Below are positions 21,905 to 43,268 of a DNA stretch of 61,486 nucleotides, piece after piece. The notes below the pieces were generated by a model, which was not told the origin of the DNA, did not search any database, and saw only the letters and a program-made list of their open reading frames with translations. Each line of letters starts with the position of its first letter. Positions within the stretch are counted from its first letter, which is position 1. Where the stretch lies: NCBI GenBank assembly GCA_028101965.1, contig JAOHMI010000008.1, positions 1-61,486 of the forward strand, in the 5' to 3' direction. The stretch is from Bacteriovoracaceae bacterium. GTDB taxonomy: Bacteria; Bdellovibrionota; Bacteriovoracia; Bacteriovoracales; Bacteriovoracaceae. A program made the translations under genes and the position numbers.

Positions 21905-21912
21905 AATTAAAA

Positions 21913-21944: not shown

Positions 21945-21969
21945 TACTAAATCTGTTTGTTTATATTAT

Positions 21970-28170: not shown

Positions 28171-31100
28171 CTATTGACTCATTTTTATAAAGTCATTTAT
28201 ACCACTATTGTACTTACTATCAGGTTCAATTTCTTGAAACAACCTGTAACTTTCAATAGCTAACTTACTTTGTCCTAGTTGTCGATAGACATCACCCTGA
28301 AGCTTATAGATTTCTGCTTTTTTAGAAACTGTTTTTACTATTCTTAAAGCCTTTTGATACAAACTTAAGGCAATATCAAACTGACCTCTCTTGAAATTAA
28401 TATTTGCAATTCCCATAATTGCATCAATTGAGTTTTGATTATATCTTTGAGCTAATTTAAAAGAATTTTCGGCTTCATTGTAATTTTCTTTTTTAATAAA
28501 CACTTCTGCTTTTAATAAATAACCAAGGTCATTCATTGGATTAAAAGAAATTTCTTTATTAGCATACTCAAGGGCTGACTCTAAATTCCCTAATAGAAAA
28601 TAACCCCTTCCAATGTAATATTGAACATTGGGATAAGTCTCAAGTGAATCTTCTAATTCTTTAAACATTTTAAGAGACTTATCTTCCTCTCCTGCTTCAA
28701 AATACGTTTTAGCCAATAGTGCTTTAATTTCAATATCAAGAGGATCAATTTCTAAAACTTTTTTTGCTGACTCAATTAACTTTCTATTGTTATTATCAAT
28801 TTGATAAACTTTCACTAAGTACAAATGTAAATTCTTCGGCTGATTAATTTCTTTTTCCAATTCTTTCTTAATATCTCGAAAATATTTTAATTGACCGTTT
28901 CTCAAATAATACATCCCTATTTCCCCCTTGATGGTGGGGTCGTTGGGAAACTTAGTTTCTCGTAAATTTAATAAATATCCTATGGCCGTATCGATTGAGT
29001 CGTACTCCATTAATATATTTGCATATTGCAGGTAATATTCCATTTTAGTTGGATTAAGTTCAATAGCTTTATTTAAAAACTCTTTTGATTTGTCGAATTT
29101 TTTCCCAATAAGAAACAAATCAGATTTCTTAGCTAAAGATATATCATCCAATGGATTGTTGGCTAAAGCTTGATTTAACCAATAAAGAGAATTATCTAAA
29201 TCACCAATCTTCCTATAAAACATTGCAAATAGAGGATAAAAAAGAGAATTATCCTTAAATGCGCTAGAGGTGATGGTCGAAATTAACTTTTTTGCATTTT
29301 TTATCTGATAAGATTTGATATAAGCTTCTAATAATGCTGCATTAATTTCCACAGACTTCGGAGTCGCCTTGTACGCTTTTTGTAAATTAATCAATGTCTG
29401 TTTATACAGGTTTCTAGATAATAAAAGTTTATTCATATAGACATTAGCATCAATATTAAACTGATCAATTAATAACGCTTCAGAAGTTAATTTAAAAGCC
29501 CTATTCCAATCTCCAGATTTATTCATCATTTTTGATCTATTCAAAATATCTTTTATCTTATTATCTTTATATAAAGATTCCTTTTTAAAGCCAGATTCAT
29601 TCAAATTACTAAGCTTACTTCTAAGCCAAGGTGAATCTTGAAAACGTAAAGATTGTTGAAAATACTTTTGCGCAGGGGCTACACCTTCATTTTGTAGCTT
29701 AACGATACCTTTATACATGAAGTATTTTGCGGTATCACTTACAAAAAGATCTTGAATATTATTTTTTATATAATCCAGAGACTCTGAAATATTTTTAATA
29801 TCATTCTCAAGCAAATAAAGATTAATTTTCTCAAAAACAAATTTTGATTCATAAGGGTAACTGTTTAAAGCTTTCGTTAAAGTTTGGAATGATTCTTCGT
29901 TCAAGGAGTTAAATTTTTGATATAATATCTTCGCATAATAAGATTCAAGATTACTTGCTTCATCCTCATGTAGTTTATCATAGACATCTTTTGCGAATTC
30001 TAACTCACCTTCTTTCAAAAGTAATTTTAAGTAAAGAGCAAATAACTCTCGACTAGGATTAGATTTTTTAACTTTTAAAAAATTTTTTATCAAAAAGATG
30101 GCAGCAGTATTTTTCCCCATTGAATGATAGTAATGCGATAAGGCTAAGGCATTAACTGACTCATATTTATTAATTTTTAATGTTTCTGCCATTTTATGAA
30201 GAATATTATAGTTACCTTTAATATCCTTAAATTCATCATGATGTTTAGTGTAAATTATTAAGAGATAAGCTAAAGATGGATTATTTTGATAATTCTCTTC
30301 TAGAGATCTATGAAAAAACTTCCTTGAAGCAATCTCATTCAACTTCCCTTGTTGCTTGAAAAATTCTTTACCCTGAAGAAATAATTCATCTGAGAGTTTT
30401 GAATTTAATACAGATTTTTCAATGGGAAAACTAAAAGTTAACTTGAGAGGCTTTAAATCAAAATCAGTTTTTTTGTCTTCTGTGGGAAAAAATAAGATTA
30501 TGACGAAAACAACTACTAAGATTAGCCCTAAAGAAGCTTTTTTACCTTTCTTCCTAACTTTGCTTAATTCTGGCTTTGCAGCTTTTTCTTCAATCTCATT
30601 TAGTAGTTTTTGATCATTTTCGTCAATTAAACTTTCATTAGACTTAAGTTTATTAGAGTCAAGTGCTTCTTTTACTCGACTCGAAGAGATAACCTCAGTT
30701 TGATCCGGGTCTAATACTTTCTCTTCTTTCTCTTCCTTTTTAAAAGCATACTTAGCTTTAACAACCTTAGTTTTATCAATATTTAATATTTTTCTTTTAG
30801 AAATTATTTTTGTTTTGTCGATACTCACTGGACTTGAATCAGACTCATCCAAAATCAACTCATTTGAATTGTTAAGTTCGACAGATTTATTAGAAGCATC
30901 TAATTCTAAATCGGTTACTATCGCATCTTTCGGTTCCTCAATATTTTCATCAATTTCTTCAATAGTTGTCTTATCATTTATGTAAGTTATTTTTGTTTTT
31001 ATATCTTCAACAAGGTCCGATTCTTTAAAAACCTTGGTACTTAAATTCCCTAAGGGATTTAAGTCATCTTCTAGAACGTTCTTAGAGATATCCTCATCGA

Positions 31101-31467
31101 CCACGAAATTATCTTCTAACGAAACATCATCTTTCAACTCTGCGATATCGGATAACTCATTAGATTCCCCGCTTTGTTCAATAAAAAAGGTATCATCTTC
31201 TTTCAAAATATTTCTTTTGAGGAAACCTTTTTTTAATTGATCCAACTTTTCAAATAACGGATCTTCATCATAATTCGTTTTATTGATTATCTGCTGGAAC
31301 TCTTTAGAGAATACCTTTTTCAAAAGATTCCAATCTCCAGAAGGAAAGGACTGTATATATTCTTCACCCTTAAGGAGTTCTTCTTCAATCAGTTTATAAA
31401 TTTGATTGTAGTCTATTGGCCCAACGATGCGGCCATTAGTTAATTTAACTTTATACATGTCTGCCAT
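28171..31467 (-). CDS. Large TPR protein with GYF-like N-domain and one membrane helix
   Basis: 1098 residues. Residues 1-55 look like a GYF_2-type domain (TNGRIVGPIDYNQIYKLIEE ... GDWNLLKKV). Residues 60-305 are acidic and disordered, with four threonine motifs of one pattern (DKTTI near 167, DKTKII at 219, DKTKVV at 233, DQTEVI at 257). One membrane helix lies at 312-328. The remaining 770 residues are tandem tetratricopeptide repeats, expected in the periplasm. The start overlaps the last membrane gene by 17 bases, so it belongs to the nuo transcript. It may scaffold or assemble a membrane complex (inference). Confidence 0.85.
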   Translation of the reverse strand: MADMYKVKLTNGRIVGPIDYNQIYKLIEEELLKGEEYIQSFPSGDWNLLKKVFSKEFQQIINKTNYDEDPLFEKLDQLKKGFLKRNILKEDDTFFIEQSGESNELSDIAELKDDVSLEDNFVVDEDISKNVLEDDLNPLGNLSTKVFKESDLVEDIKTKITYINDKTTIEEIDENIEEPKDAIVTDLELDASNKSVELNNSNELILDESDSSPVSIDKTKIISKRKILNIDKTKVVKAKYAFKKEEKEEKVLDPDQTEVISSSRVKEALDSNKLKSNESLIDENDQKLLNEIEEKAAKPELSKVRKKGKKASLGLILVVVFVIILFFPTEDKKTDFDLKPLKLTFSFPIEKSVLNSKLSDELFLQGKEFFKQQGKLNEIASRKFFHRSLEENYQNNPSLAYLLIIYTKHHDEFKDIKGNYNILHKMAETLKINKYESVNALALSHYYHSMGKNTAAIFLIKNFLKVKKSNPSRELFALYLKLLLKEGELEFAKDVYDKLHEDEASNLESYYAKILYQKFNSLNEESFQTLTKALNSYPYESKFVFEKINLYLLENDIKNISESLDYIKNNIQDLFVSDTAKYFMYKGIVKLQNEGVAPAQKYFQQSLRFQDSPWLRSKLSNLNESGFKKESLYKDNKIKDILNRSKMMNKSGDWNRAFKLTSEALLIDQFNIDANVYMNKLLLSRNLYKQTLINLQKAYKATPKSVEINAALLEAYIKSYQIKNAKKLISTITSSAFKDNSLFYPLFAMFYRKIGDLDNSLYWLNQALANNPLDDISLAKKSDLFLIGKKFDKSKEFLNKAIELNPTKMEYYLQYANILMEYDSIDTAIGYLLNLRETKFPNDPTIKGEIGMYYLRNGQLKYFRDIKKELEKEINQPKNLHLYLVKVYQIDNNNRKLIESAKKVLEIDPLDIEIKALLAKTYFEAGEEDKSLKMFKELEDSLETYPNVQYYIGRGYFLLGNLESALEYANKEISFNPMNDLGYLLKAEVFIKKENYNEAENSFKLAQRYNQNSIDAIMGIANINFKRGQFDIALSLYQKALRIVKTVSKKAEIYKLQGDVYRQLGQSKLAIESYRLFQEIEPDSKYNSGINDFIKMSQ

Positions 31468-32512
31468 ACTTTCCTACTGATCTAAAATTACTAAAAAACA
31501 CTAAAGAATGAAAAACAGCACTAAAGAAATAAAACAGATTAAAGACATCTGAACTAGATGAAACACTCTCTATATTCACATGATAATAAAAAAACATGGT
31601 GAAAACAAACAGCATAATAATTACTGTACCATAAAACTCATATAAAACAGTTTTATGAGCTCGAATAAGATAATAAATCCAAGATGACAAAAGAACTAAA
31701 AGGCTAGCAAGAAAAAAGTAATTCTCTGTTCCATAGACGATATAGAGAAAAATTAAGCTATTCGAAAGAATTAAGTTTAAAGAACCAAAGCCCAATCTGG
31801 ATGATGTAAAAAACAAAGACGAAACAAAGGAAACAAAAATCATTACTGATGATAAAATTAAAAAGAGATCCAAATCAATAGAGCCACGCTCCCTTAAAAA
31901 ATATGTTATTTTCAAAAGAATTATAATCTTTAATAGAGAACTTCCTATTTCCTTAAATGCCCCACTAAAAGGATTATTAAAAAGAAAAAACACTGTACCT
32001 AAATAATAACCAAATAAAAGATAAGTTAAAAATTGAGAATTAAATAAATTCGATCCCAACGAGAATGTAACACTGAATTGAACAATAAATAGAAAAATGA
32101 AAAATAGAAATTCTATACTATAAATGAGCCTCTCAATCATTGTTAATTTTATGCTAAATAAAAACCCAATGTAGAAAACGACAAGCAGAGAAAAAAGTAA
32201 ATACGAATTTTCAATTGAAGATAAGATATAAAACTCTAGTAAAAACAGACTCTTGTCAAAAAAATCGCCTTCTTTTCCCTTCATTACAAAAAAAAGCAAA
32301 AGAACAAATAGTACAAAGTTTTTATAAATTACTAAATTTGAAATATTTAAAGTATCTAATCCACTTGAAAACAAGCTTAAAGATAAATCAATATTAAAAA
32401 CAGAGAACAAGCCAATGAAAATTACAAAATATTTATAAAAATTCAACTTTGAGTGTGAAAAAGTATTAATTATAAAAAAAGGAATTAAGACTTTTAACAG
32501 TACTAAAGTCAT
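31451..32512 (-). CDS. NuoN-like degenerate membrane protein (second set, N')
   Basis: 353 residues, about ten to eleven membrane helices, Phe/Leu/Ile-rich. By eye it aligns with NuoN of this window: the segment FKEIGSSLLKIIILLKITYF matches SVTTFFSIVPKIAGLSALIR, with Lys195 at the place of NuoN Lys254, and GSLNLILSNSLIFLYIVYG matches the RMLAFSSIGHVGFMLLG helix. It is 135 residues shorter than NuoN. It is seventh of seven overlapping genes, in the position of nuoN. It overlaps M' by 4 bases and the TPR gene by 17. Identity is low, so homology needs a profile comparison. Confidence 0.6.
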   Translation of the reverse strand: MTLVLLKVLIPFFIINTFSHSKLNFYKYFVIFIGLFSVFNIDLSLSLFSSGLDTLNISNLVIYKNFVLFVLLLFFVMKGKEGDFFDKSLFLLEFYILSSIENSYLLFSLLVVFYIGFLFSIKLTMIERLIYSIEFLFFIFLFIVQFSVTFSLGSNLFNSQFLTYLLFGYYLGTVFFLFNNPFSGAFKEIGSSLLKIIILLKITYFLRERGSIDLDLFLILSSVMIFVSFVSSLFFTSSRLGFGSLNLILSNSLIFLYIVYGTENYFFLASLLVLLSSWIYYLIRAHKTVLYEFYGTVIIMLFVFTMFFYYHVNIESVSSSSDVFNLFYFFSAVFHSLVFFSNFRSVGKYGRHV

Positions 32513-33570
32513 AGGTATTTTACCTTTTTCTGATTTAGGCTATAGCAAGTAAAGAATATCGTAAAAGAAATGATATATATAGAAAATGAAGCTTCATAAT
32601 AAATCGCCAATAATGGAATAACTAGAAATAGCAATTGAGTTAACATAAAAGATTCTGTTTCTTTAAAAGGTATAAAGCTAAACCGTTTAACCAAAAAAAC
32701 TAATACATAAAACTTTAGAACTAATGAAAAATAGTCAAAACTAACATCTGTAACCAATGCAAATAATATCATTCCCGGAAAAACAAAAAAATCAGTTACA
32801 TTTTTAGTTAAAACCCTTACAAAATATAATACTGAAATTATAATTAAATCATATCTGTTATAAGTCAGGCCATTAAACAACAACTGATAACGTTTTTCGA
32901 AATAGTACACCGTAAATACAAATAACGAAATCAAAACTGTTAAAATAATGTGATCCGATTTGTTGCTGTCTTTGAAGTTTAAGAAAAATAGAGGAAGAAG
33001 TGCAAGAAAATATTTCAGCAAACTTAAGTAAATTTCTTTATTTATAAGCGAAGAAGAAAAACTTATTGATAGGTCTGACAGCATAATTGGGCAAACCAAA
33101 AGAGAAAATACAAAATAAAACATTTTAACTTGCAACTGAGGCATCGGACGTGAATTTAGTTTTATAAAACCTTCAAATAAAACCATCAGAACTAGCAAGG
33201 AGAATGAGAAGCTTTGAAAAACTATATAGTACTCACTAAAAAGTAAAAGTATAGAAGTCCACTTCAGGCTACTTATTCGAAAAGCCCCTGTGACAAAAAA
33301 ACAAAAATATAAAAATAAAAATGCGGTGAAGTAAACCTGGTTAACTGAAAATAACACTGGATAAAAATTTTGCACCTGAATTGAAACTAGTTCACTCATT
33401 TCAACTTTAAAAAATGAAAACATCATTAATACTAGAAAAAAAAGATGCCTGACAAAAAAAAGTGCATGATAAAGCCGATTTTTAGAAAATCGGTTAAATA
33501 AAAGTAATATTAAAGAGAGTGACGTTAAGATAAGTACTAAAACATTGTCGCTAAAAAGATATCTATTCAT
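32509..33570 (-). CDS. NuoM-like degenerate membrane protein (second set, M')
   Basis: 353 residues with about eleven membrane helices. Residues 56-170 follow NuoM residues 58-178 almost without gaps: VSIQVQNFYPVLFSVNQV against FSIKYQWIKFFNIHYSLGVD, and LMVLFEGFIKL against FYVYWEVMLLP, which puts Glu133 on the essential NuoM Glu141. The later signature segments of NuoM (PFHTWLPHAHVQAPTAVS) are missing or unrecognisable. It overlaps L' by 8 bases and N' by 4. It is probably a diverged, shortened NuoM copy. Confidence 0.62.
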   Translation of the reverse strand: MNRYLFSDNVLVLILTSLSLILLLFNRFSKNRLYHALFFVRHLFFLVLMMFSFFKVEMSELVSIQVQNFYPVLFSVNQVYFTAFLFLYFCFFVTGAFRISSLKWTSILLLFSEYYIVFQSFSFSLLVLMVLFEGFIKLNSRPMPQLQVKMFYFVFSLLVCPIMLSDLSISFSSSLINKEIYLSLLKYFLALLPLFFLNFKDSNKSDHIILTVLISLFVFTVYYFEKRYQLLFNGLTYNRYDLIIISVLYFVRVLTKNVTDFFVFPGMILFALVTDVSFDYFSLVLKFYVLVFLVKRFSFIPFKETESFMLTQLLFLVIPLLAIYYEASFSIYIISFTIFFTCYSLNQKKVKYL

Positions 33571-34426
33571 AACTCACCAAAAAGCAAACTGTAAGTATCA
33601 GCAAAGTGAACAAATAAGCATAATCTAGATTAAAGCTTAATTTTCTCAAACTACTATCTTTTGATTGTACTAATGCAGATTGCATCCTTTCTTGAGCGTT
33701 ATCCTGGATTACTAAATTGATCAGCTTATTGGGGTTTAAAAAGTAAAACTGAGGGACAAACGCTTGGAAATGTTGATTAAACAAAAGGATAAAAAAAGTA
33801 CCAACAGACAAAAGGCTAAAATAAAATGAAATATATAGATCTTTAATCGATAAAAATTCAATAACCCCCACTATAACTAACAAGAAGTGAATTACAGGAA
33901 GCAAATATGTGCTTTTCCTCAAAGATAGTAAGGAGTTAATAACAAGTATTAACATACTAATACTTGTCACTATTGAGTATCCACTAACTCCAACAAAAAG
34001 AAATAAAACAATATTACTCAAAATCAAATTAAAATAATTCCTGCATGTTAAGTTAAGAAGAAGCATTAAGAAAATAATTTTAAAATAAAAACTATCAATA
34101 CAAGAAAAAATAAGAATTGCGAGTCCAACATAAGTAACCAAATTAAAACTTCGCTTAATCGAGAAAAATAAACCAAGAAATATTGTATTTAGTAGATATA
34201 TACCTATAAAAAAGGAAGTTTTAAAAATAAAGGGCTTAAAGGGTTGCTCATCAATCTTTAAGAAATAAAGTAAAAAAGCATAAAAAACCATTGTAACAAT
34301 ATGAGAACCAACAGCAACTTGATTACAATACTTCTCATCTAACTTTAAGTTTTCAAATCGATTAATATTAGCGGCTATAATTAATATCAATATTGGTAAA
34401 AAATATAATATATATGTATTAACCAT
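33563..34426 (-). CDS. NuoL-like degenerate membrane protein (second set, L')
   Basis: 287 residues from ATG 34426, against 719 for NuoL. Most of the antiporter core cannot be aligned, but the ends fit. The N-terminus (TYILYFLPILILIIAANINR) resembles the NuoL start. The C-terminus has a polar stretch with SSLRKLSFNLDYAYLFTLLI, which resembles the LRxxQTGxxQ-helix at the end of NuoL. It sits in the fifth place of the set, as nuoL does. The start overlaps the K' stop by 8 bases. A TTG six codons earlier is an alternative start. Confidence 0.5.
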   Translation of the reverse strand: MVNTYILYFLPILILIIAANINRFENLKLDEKYCNQVAVGSHIVTMVFYAFLLYFLKIDEQPFKPFIFKTSFFIGIYLLNTIFLGLFFSIKRSFNLVTYVGLAILIFSCIDSFYFKIIFLMLLLNLTCRNYFNLILSNIVLFLFVGVSGYSIVTSISMLILVINSLLSLRKSTYLLPVIHFLLVIVGVIEFLSIKDLYISFYFSLLSVGTFFILLFNQHFQAFVPQFYFLNPNKLINLVIQDNAQERMQSALVQSKDSSLRKLSFNLDYAYLFTLLILTVCFLVSYE

Positions 34427-34637
34427 GATGATTCTTCTTCGCAAGAGTATAGACGATGAGAAGCATACAAGAGCAAATAATTATAAAAAAACTTTGTCCC
34501 TGTATTGAAATCGTGTTCAAAATATTTATTAATAAAATTAAAAACAAATTAAGTGTGATTACAAATTTACCCGGTTTGAAAATCAAAAAAAGTAAAAAGA
34601 AAAAAATATTTAAAAAAAGCAAGCCAAACTCAATCAT
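34419..34637 (-). CDS. NuoK-like degenerate membrane protein (second set, K')
   Basis: 72 residues from ATG 34637, with three membrane helices as in NuoK (about 100 residues). LNLFLILLINILN stands at the place of LLGIELILNAAALN, and QGQSFFIIICSCMLLIVYTLA at that of GHIMTLFIIVVAAAEAAVG. Both buried glutamates that NuoK needs for proton transfer are absent. It overlaps J' by 8 bases and L' by 8. A longer TTG-initiated form (34664) is possible but has no better ribosome binding site. Confidence 0.5.
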   Translation of the reverse strand: MIEFGLLFLNIFFFLLFLIFKPGKFVITLNLFLILLINILNTISIQGQSFFIIICSCMLLIVYTLAKKNHHG

Positions 34638-35049
34638 GAACAGGCTTCTTTTTTTTAAGTGCAATCATATAAAGAACAAAAATAATTAATATAAACTCAA
34701 TTGATGAAACCATATCAACAGCGCTAAGATTAATTAGATTTGAATTGATTTTTATTTTAGACAAAGCTAAAGCTAAGAGAGATGAAAGAATTACCAAGAC
34801 AATGATAATTAGGGATTGCTGACCCTTACTTGTTTTCTTATAACTTTTTGTATCATATTTTAATTCTTTAAAAATAAAACAAGATATAAATGTTATCAAT
34901 CCTGCAAGAAAAGAAAAAAATGGAATAAATTCATTTGTAGAGTTTTGAAAAATACTTATGCTTACCAAAGCACCAAGACTGATGCTATTAAGTAATTTAT
35001 TACTATTAATAAGAATGAATAATAATAATACAATGTTAATAATTACCAT
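34630..35049 (-). CDS. NuoJ-like degenerate membrane protein (second set, J')
   Basis: 139 residues with four to five membrane helices; NuoJ here has 190. The last helix begins DMVSSIEFILIIF against DHVLAFEISSVLLLG of NuoJ, keeping the D-x-V-x-x-x-E pattern. The first helices (LINSNKLLNSISLGALVSISI) follow LLNKNIMHACIALLGSLIG. The start overlaps the H' stop by one base (TAATG), the same junction as between nuoJ and nuoK upstream. A diverged NuoJ copy is likely. Confidence 0.55.
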   Translation of the reverse strand: MVIINIVLLLFILINSNKLLNSISLGALVSISIFQNSTNEFIPFFSFLAGLITFISCFIFKELKYDTKSYKKTSKGQQSLIIIVLVILSSLLALALSKIKINSNLINLSAVDMVSSIEFILIIFVLYMIALKKKKPVHD

Positions 35050-35747
35050 TATAATTCCAATTTACTTACCAAGAATGCAAGTAAAAGAGCCGATCCAAAC
35101 ACCCTTTGCCATGTATATTGATAAAATTTTAAATCTTTTTTACTCAATACGTCTAAAGAAAAAATGAGTCCCAGGAGCACTACTATTTTTATTAGAAAAA
35201 TATAAACTCCAACTGCCGGGACAATTATACTAATGACTGGGAAAAGTGTTATAAAAAAAAAGAAATAAAAGTCTACTTTCTCAACTGCTTCAATTTGATG
35301 ATTAATAATTTGCAATGATAAATAGACTAACAAAATTAAAAATATACACTGCTCTAAGATATTTAATTTGAATACCAAATAAATCGAATAAGTAATTAAG
35401 AAACTTATGGAAAGCATTACTAAATTCATATTAATCTGGAGTCCTTTTTCATTTGAAATAAAGCTATATGAAAAAAGAAAAAATCCGATAGTAGAAACCA
35501 AAACTAATGGATTCATATCGTCACCGCTCAATATTAAAAAGAGAAGAAAAGGAAGAATCAAGAATTGAATATCCTTAATCAAACGTGGATTTAATAGAAC
35601 TGGTCGTGAATATGATTTTGCCTTGTGTAACTTAGTGAAAACTTCAAAGTCACTCGTCCGCTTTACATATGCGTAAAGAGCAACTTTATAAAAAAGATGA
35701 AATCCAATCAAGAATAATACAATTAATATTGTTTCGTTAACCAGCAT
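35049..35747 (-). CDS. NuoH-like degenerate membrane protein (second set, H')
   Basis: 232 residues with about seven membrane helices; NuoH here has 375. The start of the first cytoplasmic loop reads YAYVKRTSD against YAERKISAD. The end matches NuoH over 40 residues without gaps (IKIVVLLGLIFSLDVLSKKD against TKTLLLYYVVIWVRWTLPRL), with the tryptophan of YTWQR on that of ICWKY. The acidic quinone loop of NuoH (ETNRAPFDLPEAESE) is gone, leaving only QIEAVEKVD. This is the clearest member of the set. It overlaps A' by 11 bases. Confidence 0.65.
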   Translation of the reverse strand: MLVNETILIVLFLIGFHLFYKVALYAYVKRTSDFEVFTKLHKAKSYSRPVLLNPRLIKDIQFLILPFLLFLILSGDDMNPLVLVSTIGFFLFSYSFISNEKGLQINMNLVMLSISFLITYSIYLVFKLNILEQCIFLILLVYLSLQIINHQIEAVEKVDFYFFFFITLFPVISIIVPAVGVYIFLIKIVVLLGLIFSLDVLSKKDLKFYQYTWQRVFGSALLLAFLVSKLEL

Positions 35748-36063
35748 GCCTTATTAAAAAAAATGGGAATATAAATAAATAATAAGTACTTTTATCTAAA
35801 AAGCTAATTACTTCACCTTTATTTTGCACTGACCATAAGAATGTTAATCCAATCATCAAAAAGGTTAGATAAAATACTTCACTTGTTTTTACTTTAAATG
35901 AGAAGTAATTAATCATATCTAACTTTAGTAAAGAACCAATTCTATTTTGCTTATTAAGAAGAATAAACTTAACTAAAGAATAAATGATAAAATAAATTAA
36001 TATAATAGAAACAAAGAGTTCAATATTTATACTAATAAATTTATGGTAAAAAGATTGTTGCAT
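35737..36063 (-). CDS. NuoA-like degenerate membrane protein (second set, A')
   Basis: 108 residues with three membrane helices in the NuoA layout. SEVFYLTFLMIGLTFLWSVQ stands where NuoA has VRFYVVGLIFIIFDVES, keeping the FY pair but not the Asp/Glu pair. The PYECG loop is replaced by LDMINYFSF. It begins inside the 3' end of nuoN (23-base overlap), so the second set is translationally joined to the first. On its own the similarity is weak; its place as first of seven makes the assignment reasonable. Confidence 0.5.
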   Translation of the reverse strand: MQQSFYHKFISINIELFVSIILIYFIIYSLVKFILLNKQNRIGSLLKLDMINYFSFKVKTSEVFYLTFLMIGLTFLWSVQNKGEVISFLDKSTYYLFIFPFFLIRHAG

Positions 36064-37507
36064 TTTGGGCCAGTGTATAAACCTTTTCCCAAAAGATCCC
36101 TAAAAATACGATTGGAAAAAAGAGGAAAGATATAATTAACTGATTGTTAAAGTTAACAGTCTTAGCTTTTTCTGAAAACTCAACATCTCCAAGGATCATA
36201 TATTTCGTAACCATAACGTAGTAGTAGAGAGCAATAACAGAGTTGATTGCAGCAATAAAAGCTAATGAAAAGTAACCTTTGTCTATGATTGCGCTTAATA
36301 AGTTAAACTTAGCCACGAATCCAGAAAATGGAGGCATCCCAGCTAAGGAAAATAAAGTACAACTCATTATGATGGCCAGCCAGGGATGTTTTTTTACTAA
36401 ACCCTTAAAAGAGGCCATTGTATCAGTCCCATAGTAATCTTCCAAAATTGCAGTAATATAGAATGCCACTAAAGTCATAAATACATAGGTTAATAAATAA
36501 AATAAAATCGCTCCATATCCAACAGTATCAATTACAACTATTCCCAATAACATAAAACCAACATGTCCTATGGAAGAAAAAGCGAGCATTCGTTTCATAG
36601 ATACTTGTTTTATTGCGGATACATTCCCGACAGTCATAGTTGCTACTGCGATAAGATGAATAAAAAGCACCCAGAATTCACTCAATTCATTATTAGAAGC
36701 AAAAAATATGCTAGTAATTCTTATTAACGCAGACAAACCTGCAATTTTTGGAACGATGGAAAAGAAGGTAGTCACTGAAATTGGACTTCCTTCGTAAACA
36801 TCTGGAGTCCACATGTGAAAAGGAAAACAAGAAATTTTATATCCTATCCCAACAAAGAAAAGTAAAAATCCTGCTAAGACAGAAGCAAGCTTGGTTCCCT
36901 CAACGGTTTTTAAAACTGTAAAAACTTCTGTAAATTGAATTGACCCAATAACGCCGTAAAGGTGACTCAATCCAAACAACATAATTCCCGCTGTTACTCC
37001 TCCATAAAGAAGATATTTGATTCCCGCTTCAGATGATCTAGAATCAGATCTCTTAAAACTGGCCATAACATAAGAAAGTATTGAAAGCGTTTCGATACCT
37101 AAATAAAGCGTAAGAAAGTTATTTGCAGATACCAGCAACATTCCACCAATAAGAACACCTACTCCCATAATAAGGAATTCAGGTTTAAGCTCTCTTTCAA
37201 AATCAGTTACCATTAAGGAAATAATAAAAGTGGCAGCTGTTCCGACGACCATTATAAGTTTTGCTAAAGTTCCAAATTTATCGATCACAATAGCATTAGA
37301 GAATAAGTACATTGAATCATGGCCAAAGTTCAAGCAAAGCATAATTGCGGTTAGAAACAAACCAGCAAAGGCGGCATAGTAAACCATGACTCTACCTTTT
37401 TCTCTGCTACCATACCCAGCTTCAATAAAGAGAAGCGAACACATCAAGATGATAAGTAAGACTTCTGGAATGTAAAAACCTAAATGTGATAGTAATTGCT
37501 CTAACAT
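36041..37507 (-). CDS. nuoN: NADH-quinone oxidoreductase subunit N
   Basis: 488 residues, 14 membrane helices, full length. Antiporter-like core residues are present: Glu139 in LGIETLSILSYVMASF, the lysine in GIGYKISCFPFHMWTPDVYEG, Lys254 in SIVPKIAGLSALIR and the FSSIGHVGF helix. It pumps protons as part of the complex I membrane arm. It follows nuoM by 25 bases and overlaps the next gene (A'). Confidence 0.95.
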   Translation of the reverse strand: MLEQLLSHLGFYIPEVLLIILMCSLLFIEAGYGSREKGRVMVYYAAFAGLFLTAIMLCLNFGHDSMYLFSNAIVIDKFGTLAKLIMVVGTAATFIISLMVTDFERELKPEFLIMGVGVLIGGMLLVSANNFLTLYLGIETLSILSYVMASFKRSDSRSSEAGIKYLLYGGVTAGIMLFGLSHLYGVIGSIQFTEVFTVLKTVEGTKLASVLAGFLLFFVGIGYKISCFPFHMWTPDVYEGSPISVTTFFSIVPKIAGLSALIRITSIFFASNNELSEFWVLFIHLIAVATMTVGNVSAIKQVSMKRMLAFSSIGHVGFMLLGIVVIDTVGYGAILFYLLTYVFMTLVAFYITAILEDYYGTDTMASFKGLVKKHPWLAIIMSCTLFSLAGMPPFSGFVAKFNLLSAIIDKGYFSLAFIAAINSVIALYYYVMVTKYMILGDVEFSEKAKTVNFNNQLIISFLFFPIVFLGIFWEKVYTLAQNATIFLP

Positions 37508-37532: not shown

Positions 37533-39059
37533 TTATTGGAAAGATCCTAAAAGACTCACAAGTGAACCAACAGATTCTTTCATCATATTTAATAATGGAG
37601 ATGGATATATCCCAAAAACGATAACCGCTACACAGAGAGGAATCATATAAAAAATCTCTCTTGCATTCATATCAGTATAAGACTTAACTTCTTCCACAGC
37701 TTCTCCAAAGAACATTCTTTTAAACATCCACAACAAGTAAGCTGCTCCGATCAATAGACCAAGGACAGCAATAACTGTAATTGTGGTGAATTTCTTAAAA
37801 ATACCAAGGAAAATTAGGGCCTCAGAAATAAAGCCTGAAAGACCTGGAAGACCGAGAGAAGCAAACATCCCGATTATAAAAATTGTTGTGTACTTTGGCA
37901 TGTGAGCATAGAGTCCTCCATAACCTTTAGTTCCATCGGGACGAACAATCCATCGGTGATGCGATCTTTCATAAAGTACACCAATCATAAGAAACATCAT
38001 TGCAGTAGATGTTCCGTGATTAAACATTTGTAAAACTGCACCGTTCATACCAGCTGTTGTCATTGAAGCCAATCCCAGCATAACAAAGCCCATATGGGAG
38101 ACAGATGAATAAGCTACAAGTTTTTTAACATCGGCTTGTGCCATAGCACAGAATGCACCATAAAGAACTGATACAACGCCAAGAATTGCAATAACCGTTG
38201 AGTACTCAACTGCTGCACTTGGAAATATTGGGAACGCTATTCTTAAAAATCCATAAGTTCCCATTTTCAAGAGAACACCTGCTAAAATAACGGATACCGC
38301 AGTGGGTGCTTGTACGTGAGCATGGGGAAGCCAAGTGTGAAAAGGAAATGAAGGAACTTTAATCGCAAAACCTAAGAACATAGCCCAGAAAAAGATTCTT
38401 TCAAAACTAAAGGTAGATCCAAAAACTGAAATTGTATTTTCAACAAAGTGACCACCTTGAAGAGCAAGGATGTTAAATGAATCAACACCTTTTCCGGTCG
38501 CATAATAGAGAGCAATAATTCCCACTAGCATTACAATTGAACCAAAAAATGTGTAGAGAAAAAATTTGATGGCCGCGTATTCTCGGTTTTCTCCGCCCCA
38601 AATTCCAATGAGGAAAAACATTGGTAACAGCATTACTTCCCAATAAACATAAAAAAGAAAGAAATCCAGAGCCATAAATACACCGAATACACTAGATTCG
38701 AGCATTAAAAGCAGGGCAAAGTAAGCCTTCACATATTTTGTAATTGTCCAAGAAGATAAAATACAAATAAAGAACAATAAACCTGTCAGGATAATCATTG
38801 GAAGAGAAATCCCATCAACTCCTAGACTATAGTGGATATTAAAAAATTTAATCCATTGATACTTAATACTAAACTGTTCTTGCATTCCAGGGATTGTAGT
38901 ATCAAAGTTCATATACAGAACTAAGGTCAGCAAAAAAGTCAAAAGAGTTGTCACCAGAGCAGTCACTCGAACAGCTTGATCTTTACCCTTTGGCAAACAT
39001 AAAAGAACCACCATTCCTATGATCGGTAACCAAAGAATCCAATTTAATAAACCATGCAC
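37533..39059 (-). CDS. nuoM: NADH-quinone oxidoreductase subunit M
   Basis: 508 residues, 14 membrane helices. Key parts are Glu141 in FYVYWEVMLLP, KVPSFPFHTWLPHAHVQAP, the lysine in GVLLKMGTYGF and VAYSSVSHMGFVMLG. All proton-channel residues expected of NuoM seem present. It is a central antiporter-like subunit of the complex I membrane arm. It lies 11 bases after nuoL. Confidence 0.96.
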   Translation of the reverse strand: MHGLLNWILWLPIIGMVVLLCLPKGKDQAVRVTALVTTLLTFLLTLVLYMNFDTTIPGMQEQFSIKYQWIKFFNIHYSLGVDGISLPMIILTGLLFFICILSSWTITKYVKAYFALLLMLESSVFGVFMALDFFLFYVYWEVMLLPMFFLIGIWGGENREYAAIKFFLYTFFGSIVMLVGIIALYYATGKGVDSFNILALQGGHFVENTISVFGSTFSFERIFFWAMFLGFAIKVPSFPFHTWLPHAHVQAPTAVSVILAGVLLKMGTYGFLRIAFPIFPSAAVEYSTVIAILGVVSVLYGAFCAMAQADVKKLVAYSSVSHMGFVMLGLASMTTAGMNGAVLQMFNHGTSTAMMFLMIGVLYERSHHRWIVRPDGTKGYGGLYAHMPKYTTIFIIGMFASLGLPGLSGFISEALIFLGIFKKFTTITVIAVLGLLIGAAYLLWMFKRMFFGEAVEEVKSYTDMNAREIFYMIPLCVAVIVFGIYPSPLLNMMKESVGSLVSLLGSFQ

Positions 39060-39070
39060 AATTTAACCCC

Positions 39071-41230
39071 TTATAATAGGAAATAATAATTTATAAATAC
39101 TAATGAAAAAAACATTACAACTAAATACCACTGGATTCGCCCAGTTTGAAGTTTACGAAAGATTACATTGAAAATTTTGACAATGATTCCGTTTAAATCA
39201 ACAAGGCTATCGATGACTTTGTCATCAAACCAACCTGCTAAACGAACAAAGAAAAAATTTACCTTTGCCCAGCCATCTATAAAAATTCGGTCATAGACAC
39301 CCATATCAAACCAGCTTAAAAATTTATTGAATCCAAGTAATCCTTTTTGAATAACCACACCTAGGTAGAAATCATCAAAATAGTACTTGTTAACTAAAGT
39401 TCGATAGACAGGTGCAAATGTATTAGCCCATTTATTTGGATCAGTGATTCCTCTTACATAAACTAGGTAAGAGGCAATAATAGAACCTATTGCCAAAAAT
39501 ATTGAAAGTATAGCTCCAATAAAGTGCGCTTGATGGACTCCATGCTCATCTGGATTTGGACCAAAGTAACCTAATTGATGAGTATAAGTAGCTTTAGTTA
39601 CGCTCATACTTGAAGTAACCGAATCTGAGAAACCAAAAGATGACTTTATAGTATCGACAAAATTATTAACATTCGGAGCTTCTATTAAAACCTTAAACCA
39701 CTCTTGTTTTGCTCCAAAAACTGGAACCCATTCACCAATGAGAGCTCCACTAAAAAACACACCTAAAGTAAAAATGGAAAGTATTACTAAAGGCAGATGT
39801 TGAGTTAAGCTAAAGTGTTCTTGATGACAATGATCGTAAACGTGTTGATCACGTGGTTTACCTAAGAAAATTAAACACATCATACGAGTCATATAAAACG
39901 GAGTTAAAATCGCTCCTAAAAATCCCAAAATCGGAACGATTGCAAAAGCTTTATTCTGTCCTGCCATCATTCCCCAATAAATCGCATCTCCAAGAATTCG
40001 ATCTTTAGATACAAAACCAGTAAAGAATGGCACTCCGGAAATGGCAAGCGTACAAGCCACCATACAGAGAAAAGTTATGGGTAACTTTTTAGACAAACCT
40101 CCAAGCTTTGGCATCATTTGCTCGTGAACTGAATGTATTATCGAACCTGCGCTCATAAAGAGACATGCTTTAAAGATTGCATGAGTTATAACATGCATAA
40201 ATGCTGCATTATAGGATCCCACTCCAATCCCTAATACCATATAACCAAGTTGAGAGATTGTTGAATAAGCAAGTACAGCTTTTAAATCTTTTTGGACTAA
40301 AGCAATAGTTGCTGCACCAAAAGCTGTTATGGCCCCAATAAAAGCAATGAATGGAGTTAATCCTCCCGCTTCCATTAATGGATACATTCTTAAAGATAAA
40401 TAACAACCTGCTGCAACCATAGTAGCCGCGTGAATGAGGGCTGAACCTGGAGTTGGTCCCATCATCGCATCTGGCAACCATACCTGAAGAGGAAATTGAG
40501 CTGATTTACCAATATTTCCACAGAAAATAGTAAATGCAGCAAATGTAGTCATTCCGATTCCCATAACAGTTACGGATTCGAAAGTTCCCTCTGCAATGGC
40601 TTTATAAATATCTACATAATCAACTGAACCAATTACTGCCCAAATGGCTAAAATACCTAAAAGAAAAAGGACATCTCCCACTCGAGTTGTCATGAAGGCT
40701 TTAAGCGAGGCATCCCCTGCTTTATCTTTTTCATAATAAATACCAATCAGTGAATACGAACAAAAGCCCATAATCTCCCAAAAGATAAAAAGAAGAAGTA
40801 AATTATTGGCTAAAACTAAGCCGATCATCGCAGATGTAAATAAAGATAAGAATACAAAGAATCGGCCATGACGACGATCCCCACTCATATACCAAATAGA
40901 GAATATATGAATCAATGAAGCAACACCTGTTACCATTAACAGCATAACCACTGCCATATTATCTAAGTAAATTCCTAAATCAATTTTGAAGACACTATCG
41001 CCAACACTTAAATCAAACCAATTAAAGACTTTATGCACATAAAAATTTGTGTCGTATTTACCCATGAAGTCAAAAAAGACACGAAGAGAAAAAACAAAGG
41101 AAAGCAAAATACCAATTAAGCTAACCCAATTCCCATCTTTAGGTAATTTCCTTCCCAAAAAAGCGTTGATGACAAAGGCAAAAAAGGGAAACAAAAATAT
41201 AGGTGCTATGGTGCTAACAGTATAGTCCAT
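39071..41230 (-). CDS. nuoL: NADH-quinone oxidoreductase subunit L
   Basis: 719 residues. The antiporter core includes FIFWEIMGFCSYSLIG, FPLQVWLPDAMMGPTPGSA, the HAATMVAAG helix and LAYSTISQLGYMVLG. The last 180 residues contain the long lateral helix and end with RKLQTGRIQWYLVVMFF. It is the distal pump of complex I. It follows nuoK by 4 bases. Length somewhat above the E. coli protein because of the loop at about 520-560. Confidence 0.96.
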   Translation of the reverse strand: MDYTVSTIAPIFLFPFFAFVINAFLGRKLPKDGNWVSLIGILLSFVFSLRVFFDFMGKYDTNFYVHKVFNWFDLSVGDSVFKIDLGIYLDNMAVVMLLMVTGVASLIHIFSIWYMSGDRRHGRFFVFLSLFTSAMIGLVLANNLLLLFIFWEIMGFCSYSLIGIYYEKDKAGDASLKAFMTTRVGDVLFLLGILAIWAVIGSVDYVDIYKAIAEGTFESVTVMGIGMTTFAAFTIFCGNIGKSAQFPLQVWLPDAMMGPTPGSALIHAATMVAAGCYLSLRMYPLMEAGGLTPFIAFIGAITAFGAATIALVQKDLKAVLAYSTISQLGYMVLGIGVGSYNAAFMHVITHAIFKACLFMSAGSIIHSVHEQMMPKLGGLSKKLPITFLCMVACTLAISGVPFFTGFVSKDRILGDAIYWGMMAGQNKAFAIVPILGFLGAILTPFYMTRMMCLIFLGKPRDQHVYDHCHQEHFSLTQHLPLVILSIFTLGVFFSGALIGEWVPVFGAKQEWFKVLIEAPNVNNFVDTIKSSFGFSDSVTSSMSVTKATYTHQLGYFGPNPDEHGVHQAHFIGAILSIFLAIGSIIASYLVYVRGITDPNKWANTFAPVYRTLVNKYYFDDFYLGVVIQKGLLGFNKFLSWFDMGVYDRIFIDGWAKVNFFFVRLAGWFDDKVIDSLVDLNGIIVKIFNVIFRKLQTGRIQWYLVVMFFSLVFINYYFLL

Positions 41231-41234
41231 GCAA

Positions 41235-41543
41235 TTATTCCTTTAGTTGCGAAACTTCATCTATGTGAATGGTTTCTTTTAGTTGAAAGTGTCTAATAAC
41301 AATGGCCAGTCCAACAGCTGCTTCTGCAGCCGCAACCACAATAATAAATAATGTCATTATATGACCGTCGAGATCTTGAGATCCAAATCTCGAATATGTC
41401 ACAAAATTTAAAGCCGCTGCATTCAAAATCAATTCAATACCTAACAATATGGCAATAAGTGATTTTCGTGAAAGGATTACAGCAATACCTATCAAGAATA
41501 AAAAGGCACTTATAACTAAATAACTCGCAAGGGACATCATCAT
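41235..41543 (-). CDS. nuoK: NADH-quinone oxidoreductase subunit K
   Basis: 102 residues, three membrane helices. Both glutamates of the proton path are present, in LLGIELILNAAALN and VVAAAEAAVGLAIVI, and the end has the usual IDEVSQLK. Three consecutive ATG codons could serve as the start; the first overlaps the nuoJ stop by one base. Membrane-arm subunit of complex I. Confidence 0.96.
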   Translation of the reverse strand: MMMSLASYLVISAFLFLIGIAVILSRKSLIAILLGIELILNAAALNFVTYSRFGSQDLDGHIMTLFIIVVAAAEAAVGLAIVIRHFQLKETIHIDEVSQLKE

Positions 41544-42115
41544 TACTGTTCCTCCGATGTGTTTGCCGAAGAGCTTGTGGACCGATCAGGACGGGCAATA
41601 ATCGCTGCACCCACAAGAGCTCCTAATAAAAGAACTGAAGATATTTCAAAGGCCAAAACGTGATCCGTTAAAAGCAATTCTCCCAAACGCTCGAGAGTAG
41701 AGGCTTCAATCAAATTTGGATCTATATCTTTTTTTGGTATTGAGGAAAGAGAGCTTTCAGTTAAACCATATATGATCATGCCAAATAAAGCAGCTGATAC
41801 GATTCCGACTGAGTAACTAGTAGCATTTCCCATGTTTGGTGTTAAATCGAATAACTTTTGGGTTTTAGAAACAAAATCCTGTCCACCTGTAAGCATAACA
41901 GCGAACAACATTAAAATAACAACTCCGCCCACATAAACCATTAATTGAGTTGCTGCCACAAAATCAGCCCCCAAAGTTAAATATAATCCCGCAATACCTA
42001 TCAAGCTTCCTAAGAGGGCTATACAGGCATGCATAATATTTTTATTAAGCAATACGACCAAGGCAGAAGCTACTGTTAGCACTGTGGACATGATAAAAAG
42101 CAATTTATGAAACAT
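41543..42115 (-). CDS. nuoJ: NADH-quinone oxidoreductase subunit J
   Basis: 190 residues with five membrane helices. GADFVAATQLMVYVGGVVILMLF contains the third helix with its pi-bulge tyrosine-glycine-glycine, and DHVLAFEISSVLLLGALVG is the last helix. It takes part in coupling quinone reduction to the pumps. 25 bases after nuoH. Confidence 0.95.
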   Translation of the reverse strand: MFHKLLFIMSTVLTVASALVVLLNKNIMHACIALLGSLIGIAGLYLTLGADFVAATQLMVYVGGVVILMLFAVMLTGGQDFVSKTQKLFDLTPNMGNATSYSVGIVSAALFGMIIYGLTESSLSSIPKKDIDPNLIEASTLERLGELLLTDHVLAFEISSVLLLGALVGAAIIARPDRSTSSSANTSEEQ

Positions 42116-42140
42116 CTTTTATAACCTTATGTCTTAAAAA

Positions 42141-43268
42141 TTAGTTCATTATTAAATTAAACATGGATCTGCCATCAAACTTAACTAGCCAAAAAGCACA
42201 TCCGACTAAATTAAAAATCGCGATAGGTGTTAAATATTTCCAGCAAATCATCATAAGCTGATCAACTCGTAATCGAGGTAATGTCCATCGAACCCATATG
42301 ACTACATAATAAAGAAGGAGTGTTTTTGTTACAAAACTGCCAATTTGAAGAAATTGTCCTATAAGTGTATCTCCACCCAAATCAAAAGGAACCCTGTATC
42401 CACCAAGAAATAGTGCTGCAGCGACTCCACAAACAACAAAAATTTCCACATACTCTGCTAAAGCAAAAAAACCAAACCTCATCCCTGTGTACTCTGTGTT
42501 GTACCCAGAAACTAATTCTGATTCAGCTTCAGGTAAATCAAATGGAGCTCGGTTAGTTTCAGCTAATGCACCTGTAAAAAAGACAAAAAACCCAACGAAG
42601 GTAAATGGATTATGAAAAACGAACCACTCGTGAGGAAATCCGCCTTGAGCACCAATAAGCTTATCAAAGCTTATCCCACCGGATAATACAGCTATGGCCA
42701 ATATGGAAATAGTCACAGGTATTTCATAAGAAATGATTTGCGAAGCTCCTCTCATTCCACCTAGTAAAGACCATTTTGAATTGGCGGCGTAGCCACCAAG
42801 AAAAACGGCGATACCAACCAAAGAAGAAACCGCTAATAAATAGAAGACACCAATGTTTAGATTAGTTAATGCTAAGCCAGACGAAAAAGGTAGAACTGCA
42901 AGAGTGGCAAAAACACCTAATAGAGCGAGCATTGGAGCAAAATAAAACAAAAATTTATCTGCACCACGAGGAATAATATCCTCTTTTAAGATCATTTTTA
43001 CACCATCGGCTAAAAACTGAAGTATCCCGTAAGGTCCAACTCTATTTGGTCCAATTCGTGCTTGCAAGTCTGCAGAAATTTTTCTTTCAGCATATGTTCC
43101 TAGACCACCAACAGCAGAGAGAATATTCACGACAATGAAGGCAGCAATAAAATAGACGGTAAAGGCAAAAACCATCTGTCCATTTTCTCCAAACAGGGAA
43201 TTGAAAAAACCAATAATGTGGTTATAAAAAGGCAAAGTCGAAAAATAAGAAACGATGGTCGAGTTCAT
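42141..43268 (-). CDS. nuoH: NADH-quinone oxidoreductase subunit H
   Basis: 375 residues. Family motifs are complete: YAERKISADLQARIGPNRVG, the LADGVKMILKEDIIP loop, ETNRAPFDLPEAESE (quinone-chamber acidic loop) and the C-terminal LPRLRVDQLMMICWKYL. It forms the base of the quinone channel. AAAGGG precedes the ATG. A 33-codon open frame ends in its start codon (ATGA). Confidence 0.96.
   Translation of the reverse strand: MNSTIVSYFSTLPFYNHIIGFFNSLFGENGQMVFAFTVYFIAAFIVVNILSAVGGLGTYAERKISADLQARIGPNRVGPYGILQFLADGVKMILKEDIIPRGADKFLFYFAPMLALLGVFATLAVLPFSSGLALTNLNIGVFYLLAVSSLVGIAVFLGGYAANSKWSLLGGMRGASQIISYEIPVTISILAIAVLSGGISFDKLIGAQGGFPHEWFVFHNPFTFVGFFVFFTGALAETNRAPFDLPEAESELVSGYNTEYTGMRFGFFALAEYVEIFVVCGVAAALFLGGYRVPFDLGGDTLIGQFLQIGSFVTKTLLLYYVVIWVRWTLPRLRVDQLMMICWKYLTPIAIFNLVGCAFWLVKFDGRSMFNLIMN

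What the first reader, a model, noticed from the sequence alone, without database searches (positions are those of the whole stretch)
31451..36063. A second, strongly degenerate complex I membrane arm (A-H-J-K-L-M-N) in tandem with the normal one
Seven small, very hydrophobic genes follow nuoN with overlaps of 1-23 bases. Each resembles by eye the nuo gene of the same rank: A' (FY pair in the second helix), H' (YAxxK-x-x-[AS]-D loop and a gap-free C-terminal 40 residues), J' (DxVxxxE last helix), K' (three helices), L' (N- and C-terminal ends), M' (115 nearly gap-free residues including Glu133 on Glu141), N' (Lys195 on Lys254). The order is exactly that of the upstream operon, and the H'/J' junction even copies the TAATG overlap of nuoJ/nuoK. 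All are shortened by 20-60 percent. K' has lost both proton-path glutamates and H' the quinone loop, yet every frame is intact. An ancient tandem duplication of the whole arm, kept under selection as a non-pumping scaffold, a partner ring, or a separate complex with the downstream TPR protein, would explain this. I know of no described equivalent.
Basis: partly seen in the sequence, partly recalled or inferred. Interest (0 to 1): 0.93.

Follow-up and report, generated by a model that had tools for sequence, protein, structure and literature searches.

The report
Hollowed-out second complex I membrane arm
Next to its normal respiratory complex I genes, this relative of predatory bacteria carries the eroded membrane half of a second, ancient complex I, which across its bacterial family has lost pump, quinone and NADH parts step by step while staying intact as genes and, in most relatives, keeping its iron-sulfur wiring.

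Summary
In 50 of 101 nuoN loci (window included) exactly seven membrane genes sit between nuoN and the same TPR gene, grading from a canonical A-H-J-K-L-M-N arm (genus g14) to forms as eroded as the window's. Two corrections. It is not a copy of the first arm: a genome of another family has both arms full length in tandem, and the tree puts the second arm in another complex I lineage. And it is half of a complex: relatives carry its peripheral half elsewhere, lipoprotein-B'-CD'-(E-F-G)-I'. Canonical genera keep E/F/G; elsewhere these are usually gone, the quinone histidine is lost in 53 of 54, and most pump residues checked are gone. Yet B' keeps all four cluster cysteines in 30 of 52 and I' all eight in 35 of 50. 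In relatives dN is 3-12 times that of arm 1, but dN/dS stays below 1. Best reading: a non-pumping, NADH- and quinone-independent redox or scaffold complex derived from complex I. The window genome is incomplete and its peripheral half was not found; electron acceptor and lipoprotein role are unknown.

The parts
35737..36063 (-). A' (108 aa), slot of NuoA in arm 2
   Evidence: Position and order shared by 58 family loci (window included) that hold at least A'-K'; acidic pair of NuoA not found
35049..35747 (-). H' (232 aa), slot of NuoH in arm 2
   Evidence: Position; the slot profile recovers 42 of 58 family H' but not the window's; no Pfam hit; AF2 single-sequence model pLDDT 54, inconclusive
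34630..35049 (-). J' (139 aa), slot of NuoJ in arm 2
   Evidence: Position; best profile score in its own slot, 15.8 bits, but other slots come close
34419..34664 (-). K' (81 aa from TTG, about 72 aa from the inner ATG), slot of NuoK in arm 2
   Evidence: Position; no charged residue in helix cores, both NuoK glutamates lost
33563..34444 (-). L' (293 aa), slot of NuoL in arm 2; shortest among the 50 complete seven-gene arms
   Evidence: Position and length series
32509..33570 (-). M' (353 aa), slot of NuoM in arm 2
   Evidence: Position; single-sequence search of 59 genomes (own included) found only itself; no Pfam hit
31451..32512 (-). N' (353 aa), slot of NuoN in arm 2
   Evidence: Position; no Pfam hit; AF2 single-sequence model pLDDT 49, inconclusive
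28171..31467 (-). TPR protein (1098 aa, one predicted TM helix), constant downstream neighbour, present with or without arm 2
   Evidence: Pfam TPR hits; synteny
36041..37507 (-). nuoN of arm 1 (normal)
   Evidence: Family search and tree
37533..43754 (-). nuoM, L, K, J, H, A of arm 1 (normal): nuoM 37533-39059, nuoL 39071-41230, nuoK 41235-41543, nuoJ 41543-42115, nuoH 42141-43268, nuoA 43341-43754
   Evidence: ORFs and synteny in relatives; key residues intact in all 17 arm-1 sets checked

Best explanation
The seven genes are the eroded membrane arm of a second, ancestral respiratory complex I. Shown by comparison: in this family the second complex is encoded in two unlinked places, A'-H'-J'-K'-L'-M'-N' behind nuoN and lipoprotein-B'-CD'-(E-F-G)-I', usually before aat; three genera keep a working-looking set as far as their contigs could be read, and most others have lost NADH module, quinone site and pump residues. 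Inferred: after those losses the complex works as a non-pumping, NADH- and quinone-independent membrane complex. In most relatives it would still pass electrons from a soluble low-potential donor (ferredoxin type) along N6a-N6b-N2 in I' and B' to a new acceptor bound in the altered CD'/B' cavity, and the membrane subunits are now mainly a hydrophobic anchor or scaffold, which explains their very fast but not free evolution. In the window's own clade the nearest relatives with data have lost N2 or the whole second complex, so the window's arm is probably a late stage. Identity of the seven genes: about 0.93; the redox/scaffold mechanism: about 0.5.
For: Synteny: 101 nuoN loci of the family examined: 50 with exactly seven membrane genes between nuoN and the TPR gene (window included), 3 with five (the three g5 loci), 7 partial at contig ends, 40 with none, 1 undecidable. 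Profile-profile matches of full-length arm 2 (17 loci) against arm 1 lie on the diagonal (H, L, M, N 99.9-100%; A, J, K 97.8-98.8%), and degenerate H still matches NuoH (97%, 5.7e-11). Second peripheral locus in 58 fetched loci; 44 read lipo-B-CD-I without E/F/G (in one of them B' was not recognised by profile). Quinone His: 53 of 54 degenerate CD' lost it, the least kept of 81 reference-invariant columns; Tyr kept in 10 of 54, both in 0 of 54; 20 columns (one the start Met) kept in 54 of 54. Cluster ligands: B' four Cys in 30 of 52, I' eight Cys in 35 of 50; a full N2 set with an incomplete I' set occurs in 0 of 49. B' of G097 (g13), whose CD' the family search saw at best weakly, shows CC, CSTSGG and PGCPP motifs by eye. 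Pump residues of K, A, H, L, M intact in 17 of 17 arm-1 sets and, but for one Asp/Glu swap in A, in the canonical genera sampled; mostly lost elsewhere, first signs in G019. Selection: in 16 of 16 degenerate congeneric pairs pN < pS; dN/dS 0.13-0.46 in the 10 not saturated. Identity falls from lipo/B'/CD'/I' over A'/H'/J'/K' to L'/M' in most pairs. Co-loss: G006 lacks arm 2 and its lipo gene abuts aat with no B/CD/I between; in G031 (99% complete) no arm 2, lipo or CD' was recognised.
Against: Sequence similarity does not reach the window's own seven proteins, and the two models are of too low confidence to test the fold. The window genome (66.6% complete) shows no lipo and no CD', and in its sister genera g64 and g32 none was recognised either (CD' in five genomes; lipo in two), so its arm may be an orphan. 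Genus g24 keeps lipo-B'-CD'-I' with no arm 2 behind nuoN, so the two halves are separable. B' has lost one or more N2 ligands in every member sampled of 9 of 24 genera, and some I' keep no proper cluster although all seven membrane genes are there (g21, g35, g16), so electron transfer cannot be the function everywhere. In B' the cysteines are kept only somewhat better than other invariant columns (0.69 against 0.52). dS is near saturation in all degenerate pairs. No acceptor, donor or phenotype is known.
Confidence: 0.6

Rival explanations
1. Plain decay: the second complex I became useless after loss of its NADH module and is being lost; the intact frames are only a snapshot.
For: Fast evolution, shrinking, loss in many genera (40 of 101 loci without arm 2); function-bearing residues go early.
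Against: Every locus read from nuoN to the TPR gene and holding an arm had seven open frames (50) or, in g5, five (2); pN < pS in 16 of 16 pairs; 20 CD' columns kept in 54 of 54 while the quinone His is lost in 53 of 54, and cluster cysteines kept far above other invariant columns in I' (0.84 against 0.39): selective keeping, not uniform decay; 6 to 11 separate transitions on the arm-1 tree if loss is irreversible.
Confidence: 0.25
2. The complex still couples electron transfer to ion movement, with new residues in place of the old ones.
For: All seven membrane genes kept in 50 loci; charged residues per helix core in L', M', N' are not reduced; some N' keep aligned Glu and Lys.
Against: The conserved Glu/Lys sites of L, M, K and A are mostly gone in aligned transitional forms; L' and M' are the fastest-changing parts in most pairs; g5 has lost M' and N' and most of L'.
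Confidence: 0.1
3. The window's seven ORFs are unrelated membrane proteins that happen to lie in this place.
For: No significant sequence match to any Nuo protein.
Against: Same slot, same number, same order and similar sizes as in 49 other complete loci; only 16 of 5040 orders of the seven lengths fit the degenerate family medians as well.
Confidence: 0.04
4. A lineage-specific tandem copy of the upstream arm.
For: Tandem position and same order.
Against: The concatenated tree separates arm 1 + G038 arm 1 (1.0) from arm 2 + third operon + G038 arm 2 (0.997); both arms are full length, as far as read, in G038 of another family.
Confidence: 0.03

Closest known systems
Respiratory complex I (NDH-1), 14-subunit form of E. 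coli
   Same: Gene order of the membrane arm; fused NuoCD; B, CD, I with N2/N6a/N6b ligands; genera g14 and g31 keep the set including E, F, G, g28 as far as its contigs reach
   Different: Membrane and peripheral halves unlinked; NADH module, quinone His/Tyr and most pump residues lost in most genera; a lipoprotein gene in front of B' in 56 of 58 loci; very fast membrane subunits
11-subunit complex I-like enzymes without NuoEFG (cyanobacterial, archaeal Fpo and others; recalled)
   Same: No NADH module; electrons would enter at NuoI (recalled)
   Different: Those keep the quinone-type site and pump residues (recalled); here they are lost
Ehr, energy-converting-hydrogenase-related complexes that lack metal ligands (recalled; one paper search found nothing)
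   Same: A member of the complex I superfamily that lost its canonical catalytic site but stays a complex (recalled)
   Different: Ehr is of the group 4 hydrogenase line (recalled); here a genuine NuoCD-type complex I is dismantled within one family
Mrp antiporters (recalled)
   Same: Homologues of NuoL/M/N and NuoK
   Different: No NuoH, A, J slots there (recalled); the order here is that of nuo

Membership tests
Complex I (NDH-1), window arm 2 | Membrane gene order A-H-J-K-L-M-N | tested here: met
   seven slots, same order and neighbours as the canonical arms; slot identity rests on position
Complex I (NDH-1), window arm 2 | Recognisable sequence similarity to Nuo subunits | tested here: not met
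   no significant match for the window's seven; slot profiles reach relatives only (H 42 of 58, A 22, J 21, K 21 of 58, N 21, L and M 15 of 50)
Complex I (NDH-1), window arm 2 | Proton-path residues (K Glu36/72, A Asp79/Glu81, L/M/N Glu and Lys) | tested here: not met
   (alignment of window L', M', N' unreliable)
Complex I (NDH-1), window arm 2 | NuoH and antiporter folds | tested here: inconclusive
   pLDDT 54 and 49 from single sequences; no fold search run
Complex I (NDH-1), second complex of relatives | Peripheral B-CD-I core with N2, N6a, N6b ligands | tested here: met
   met in B' of 30 of 52 and I' of 35 of 50 degenerate sequences; not met in the rest
Complex I (NDH-1), second complex of relatives | NADH module E-F-G | tested here: not met
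   44 of 58 loci read lipo-B-CD-I with no E, F or G; in g6 and g27 F' lacks the Gly-rich motif; met only in g14, g31 and, as far as read, g28
Complex I (NDH-1), second complex of relatives | Quinone-binding His and Tyr of NuoD | tested here: not met
   His in 1 of 54, Tyr in 10 of 54, both in 0 of 54 degenerate CD'; both present in the four canonical CD
Complex I (NDH-1), second complex | Assembly into one particle | not testable with these tools
   Needs biochemistry
Ehr complexes | Phylogenetic place in the group 4 hydrogenase line | not tested
   The one CD' scanned carries both NuoC and NuoD domains, which speaks for complex I proper
Mrp antiporter | mrpA-G gene set instead of NuoH/A/J-type slots | tested here: not met
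   Full-length forms of the slots match NuoA-N profiles, NuoH included; no Mrp profile was run

The most novel reading that the evidence does not exclude
Within one bacterial family a whole second complex I has been turned, apparently several times over, into a new kind of membrane complex: no NADH site, no quinone site, no proton pumping, but a kept three-cluster electron wire, a kept NuoD core and a constant lipoprotein partner, with the seven pump subunits reduced to fast-evolving hydrophobic scaffolds that are pared away from the far end inward until only lipoprotein, B', CD' and I' (in the extreme, apparently only lipoprotein and a D' remnant) are left.
Probability: 0.45. Interest if true: 0.92.

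Novelty: new variant of a known kind. Interest (0 to 1): 0.82.

Why it matters
Complex I is among the best-studied redox pumps, and how its parts depend on each other is tested mostly by mutants. Here nature supplies a graded series of complete, intermediate and almost empty complexes in one family, in which a rough order of giving up parts can be read: NADH module, quinone site and E-channel/pump residues early, N2 before the clusters of I', distal membrane subunits faster than proximal ones. The order is not strict (g6 keeps degenerate E/F/G; g21 and g35 lost the clusters but keep seven membrane genes). It makes directly testable whether the fold can be kept without pumping, what else its cavity and clusters can do, and whether a proton pump can become a structural or redox module. 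It would also give a meaning to genes in many genomes that no family model recognises.

Tried and rejected
Single-sequence search of M' in 59 genomes (own included) found only itself. The search for related loci with nuoN gave one short contig. Mixed profiles of the degenerate arms failed against arm 1 for A, J, K, L, M and N and worked only for H. Iterated profiles stop early for L and M. IQ-TREE failed and timed out, so FastTree was used. Single-sequence models of window H' and N' were of low confidence, so no fold search was run. A degenerate H' alignment (A3) had no usable signal, so I did not search with it; whether arm-2 genes lie elsewhere in g24 was therefore not tested. The four-helix gene after I' in several g24 loci and g59 was checked as a possible membrane anchor and is a DesA-type desaturase (one example). 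The lipoprotein matched nothing in Pfam (one protein), NCBIfam (three) or PDB sequences (one). A lineage-specific tandem duplication was rejected by the tree. Number of independent decays: 11 on the arm-1 tree, 8 after collapsing weak nodes, 7 or 6 with only tips that carry arm 2; the lipoprotein tree also separates canonical g14 and g31, but the CD and H trees put the canonical genera together, which may be long-branch attraction or transfer, so this number is uncertain. The column labels were partly wrong (motif not found in E. coli as I wrote it); in the 596-residue E. coli protein the quinone His and Tyr are 224 and 273, identified from the recalled motifs, and one search uses these.
Full report
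WHAT IS THERE. Behind nuoN of a normal nuoA-H-J-K-L-M-N set (43754 down to 36041, minus strand) lie seven intact hydrophobic ORFs and then a TPR protein. GC falls from about 35-37% in the normal set to 25-27% in most of the second. Base composition alone does not give such frames.

THE FAMILY SERIES. The window genome (66.6% complete) is one of 129 genomes of its family that were searched; nuoN was found in 100 of them at E <= 1e-60. One genome, G126 in genus g24, has a contig of the same length, with the nuoN match at the same place, as a Bacteriovorax stolpii MAG contig, so the family is very probably that of Bacteriovorax. I read the DNA behind nuoN in 101 loci, the window among them. In 50, exactly seven membrane genes stand between nuoN and the TPR gene. 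In the three loci of genus g5 there are five (A', H', J', K' and a 212-214 aa L'). Seven are cut by contig ends, 40 have no such genes, and one cannot be judged. Of the 50, 13 belong to genus g14 and look canonical; G019, G110, G102 and G075 are long but changed; 33, with the window, are clearly shortened. Median lengths drop, for example H 384 in arm 1, 349 in g14 and 287 in the eroded forms; L 726, 657, 455; M 509, 494, 310.

IS IT HOMOLOGY? Long second arms (17 loci) match the first arms on the diagonal with profile-profile probabilities of 97.8-100%. The eroded group (32 loci, window left out) still matches at H (97%, E 5.7e-11) against arm 1, and at H, N, K and J (99.5, 97.5, 81 and 75%) against the long arm 2, but not at A, L or M. 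Iterated profiles seeded with g14 and G019 reach 42 of 58 H', 22 of 58 A', 21 of 58 J', 21 of 58 K', 21 of 50 N' and 15 of 50 L' and M'; the window's seven are not among them. For the window the case therefore rests on position, number, order, size (16 of 5040 orders of its lengths fit as well) and the unbroken series, not on its own sequence. Single-sequence models did not settle the fold.

ORIGIN. A genome of another family of the phylum, G038, has J-K-L-M-N of one arm (its A and H lie outside the stretch read) followed by a whole A-H-J-K-L-M-N, all full length. In the concatenated H-L-M-N tree, arm 1 with the first arm of G038 forms one clade (1.0), and arm 2 with the second arm of G038 and with a third, 14-gene operon of some family members forms another (0.997). 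Both arms and their tandem order thus look older than the family, and arm 2 is not a copy of its neighbour; only one genome outside the family was read in full over this stretch. Terminal branches of eroded or transitional arm 2 are 1.35-3.2 against 0.15-0.5 in arm 1 and 0.05-0.11 within g14.

THE OTHER HALF. NuoD-type searches led to a second locus in most genera: a lipoprotein gene of about 500 aa, then B, fused CD, optionally E-F-G, then I, usually followed by aat. I fetched 58 such loci (layout). G013 and G030 have E, F and G; G027 and G067 have E and F up to the contig end; the two g6 loci have degenerate E, F and G; G028 has only G; three g61 loci have an unrecognised gene and G; G026 has F and G but no recognised I; 44 read lipo-B-CD-I (in G076 the B' ORF was in place but not recognised); G111, G025 and G144 could not be read fully. 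The lipoprotein is found in 48 of 59 family genomes and, weakly, in 1 of 38 genomes of other families. By my count it occurs in 26 of 30 genomes with arm 2 or part of it (G000, G025, G027 and G101 lack it) and in 4 of 9 without. In G006, which lacks arm 2, the lipoprotein gene abuts aat with nothing between. In G014, with no nuoN found, it is followed by a 402-aa ORF that looks to my eye like a D' remnant. In g24 the arm is gone from behind nuoN but lipo-B'-CD'-I' stays in all eight g24 loci read; whether arm-2 genes lie elsewhere there was not tested.

WHAT IS LOST AND WHAT IS KEPT. In the reference columns, arm 1 (17 sets), G038, the third operon and arm 2 of the canonical genera sampled (five g14 genomes over all subunits; G030, G027 and the partial g14 locus of G068 for proximal ones) carry Glu36/Glu72 in K, the A pair (Asp-Glu; Asp-Asp in G068), the H acidic/basic set and, where readable, Glu/Lys in L and M, with Asp for Glu in L of G038 arm 2. 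Not every site is kept in g14: arm-2 NuoN has Ile for Lys247 and NuoJ has Asn for Tyr59. G019, which has lost E/F/G, already shows K Glu-His, A Gln-Gln, L Glu-Asn-Trp and M with its last Glu changed; in the further eroded forms most of these sites are gone, though N' keeps some. In CD', 54 eroded sequences from 26 genera were compared with seven references: 20 of 81 reference-invariant columns (one of them the start Met) are kept in all 54, but the quinone His is kept in one, the least of all columns; Tyr in 10, Asp325 in 12. In B' the four N2 cysteines are complete in 30 of 52 (15 of 24 genera); in I' all eight in 35 of 50 (18 of 24 genera). Mean keeping by genus in I' is 0.84 for Cys and 0.39 for other invariant columns; in B' it is 0.69 against 0.52, so the contrast there is smaller. 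The losses are nested in the 49 loci with both proteins: both sets full in 30, N2 incomplete with I' full in 5, both reduced in 14, and full N2 with reduced I' in none. Twelve I' sequences, from g24, g5 and g59, keep the four cysteines 70, 99, 102 and 105 while 60, 63 and 109 are lost; by the ferredoxin rule (recalled) these four make one whole cluster. G097 of g13, fetched later and not in these counts, has a B' with the CC, C and C motifs beside a CD' that the family search saw at best weakly.

SELECTION. In 20 congeneric pairs arm 1 gives dN/dS of 0.02-0.12 where computable, and arm 2 in g14 (4 pairs) 0.04-0.08. In the 16 eroded pairs (the two g5 pairs over A', H', J', K' only) arm-2 dN is about 3 to 12 times that of arm 1, pN is below pS in all, and dN/dS is 0.13-0.46 in the ten pairs not saturated; dS is high everywhere, so the figures are rough. 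Identity in congeners falls from lipoprotein, B', CD' and I' to A', H', J', K' and then to L' and M' in most pairs, with exceptions such as g5, where A'-K' are as conserved as CD'. Under irreversible loss the arm-1 tree asks for 11 separate decays, 8 after collapsing weak nodes, or 6-7 when only genomes with arm 2 are used; other trees disagree in part.

HOW IT MAY WORK. Shown: loss of the NADH module, quinone site and pump residues; keeping of the CD' core, of the gene set and, in most sequences, of the cluster ligands. Inferred: a membrane-bound B'-CD'-I' that takes electrons from a soluble donor and hands them to something other than quinone, with the old pump as anchor. In genera that lost N2 the remaining use must be structural or involve I' alone. 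The window's nearest sampled relatives on the arm-1 tree (g64 and g32, support 0.758; then g35, g21, g5, g24) have no recognised second complex or one without N2, and the window genome shows no second peripheral half, so for the window itself a scaffold or last-stage arm is as likely as a redox complex.

WHAT IS KNOWN. Eight full-text searches of the held open-access library (listings only, no paper read) gave nothing on a degenerate second complex I or on nuo genes of this family. Subscription papers and preprints were not searched. Residue roles, motifs and comparisons with 11-subunit enzymes, Ehr and Mrp rest on recall.

Noticed in passing
L056:6476-7933, L184:6009-7499, and 54 other loci: Family-specific lipoprotein of about 500 aa with a lipobox-like Cys and eight further Cys invariant in 13 aligned sequences, in front of nuoB' in 56 of 58 loci; no Pfam, NCBIfam or PDB match for those scanned.
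   Followed up: partly
L075, L181, L182, L185: A third complex I, a canonical nuo operon, in G004 and in g24 genomes; it groups with arm 2 in the tree.
   Followed up: partly
L184:9912-10994, L183:7080-8156, L185:16835-17911, L187:4469-5545: A DesA-type fatty acid desaturase gene directly behind I' in several g24 loci and in g59; not in all (absent in L186 and L190). Family hit checked for L184 only.
   Followed up: partly
window 28171-31467: Large TPR protein with a conserved N-terminal stretch (Y-R-V-K-L..G-R-x-V-G-P-F type) that follows nuoN or arm 2 in nearly every locus; role unknown.
   Followed up: no
window 20344-22248: A pair that looks like DUF692 (MNIO) enzyme plus partner, next to a small Cys-rich protein with GEGKCG/GEGSCG motifs: resembles a bufferin-type peptide locus (recalled, not tested).
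   Followed up: no
L148 (G026:C40): G026 shows a second nuoN contig whose nuoN is followed directly by the TPR gene, beside a first locus with arm 2 (L044): two organisms in one bin or two copies.
   Followed up: no
L198:252-1460: In G014, a genome with no nuoN found, the lipoprotein is followed by a 402-aa ORF that resembles a NuoD remnant by eye.
   Followed up: partly
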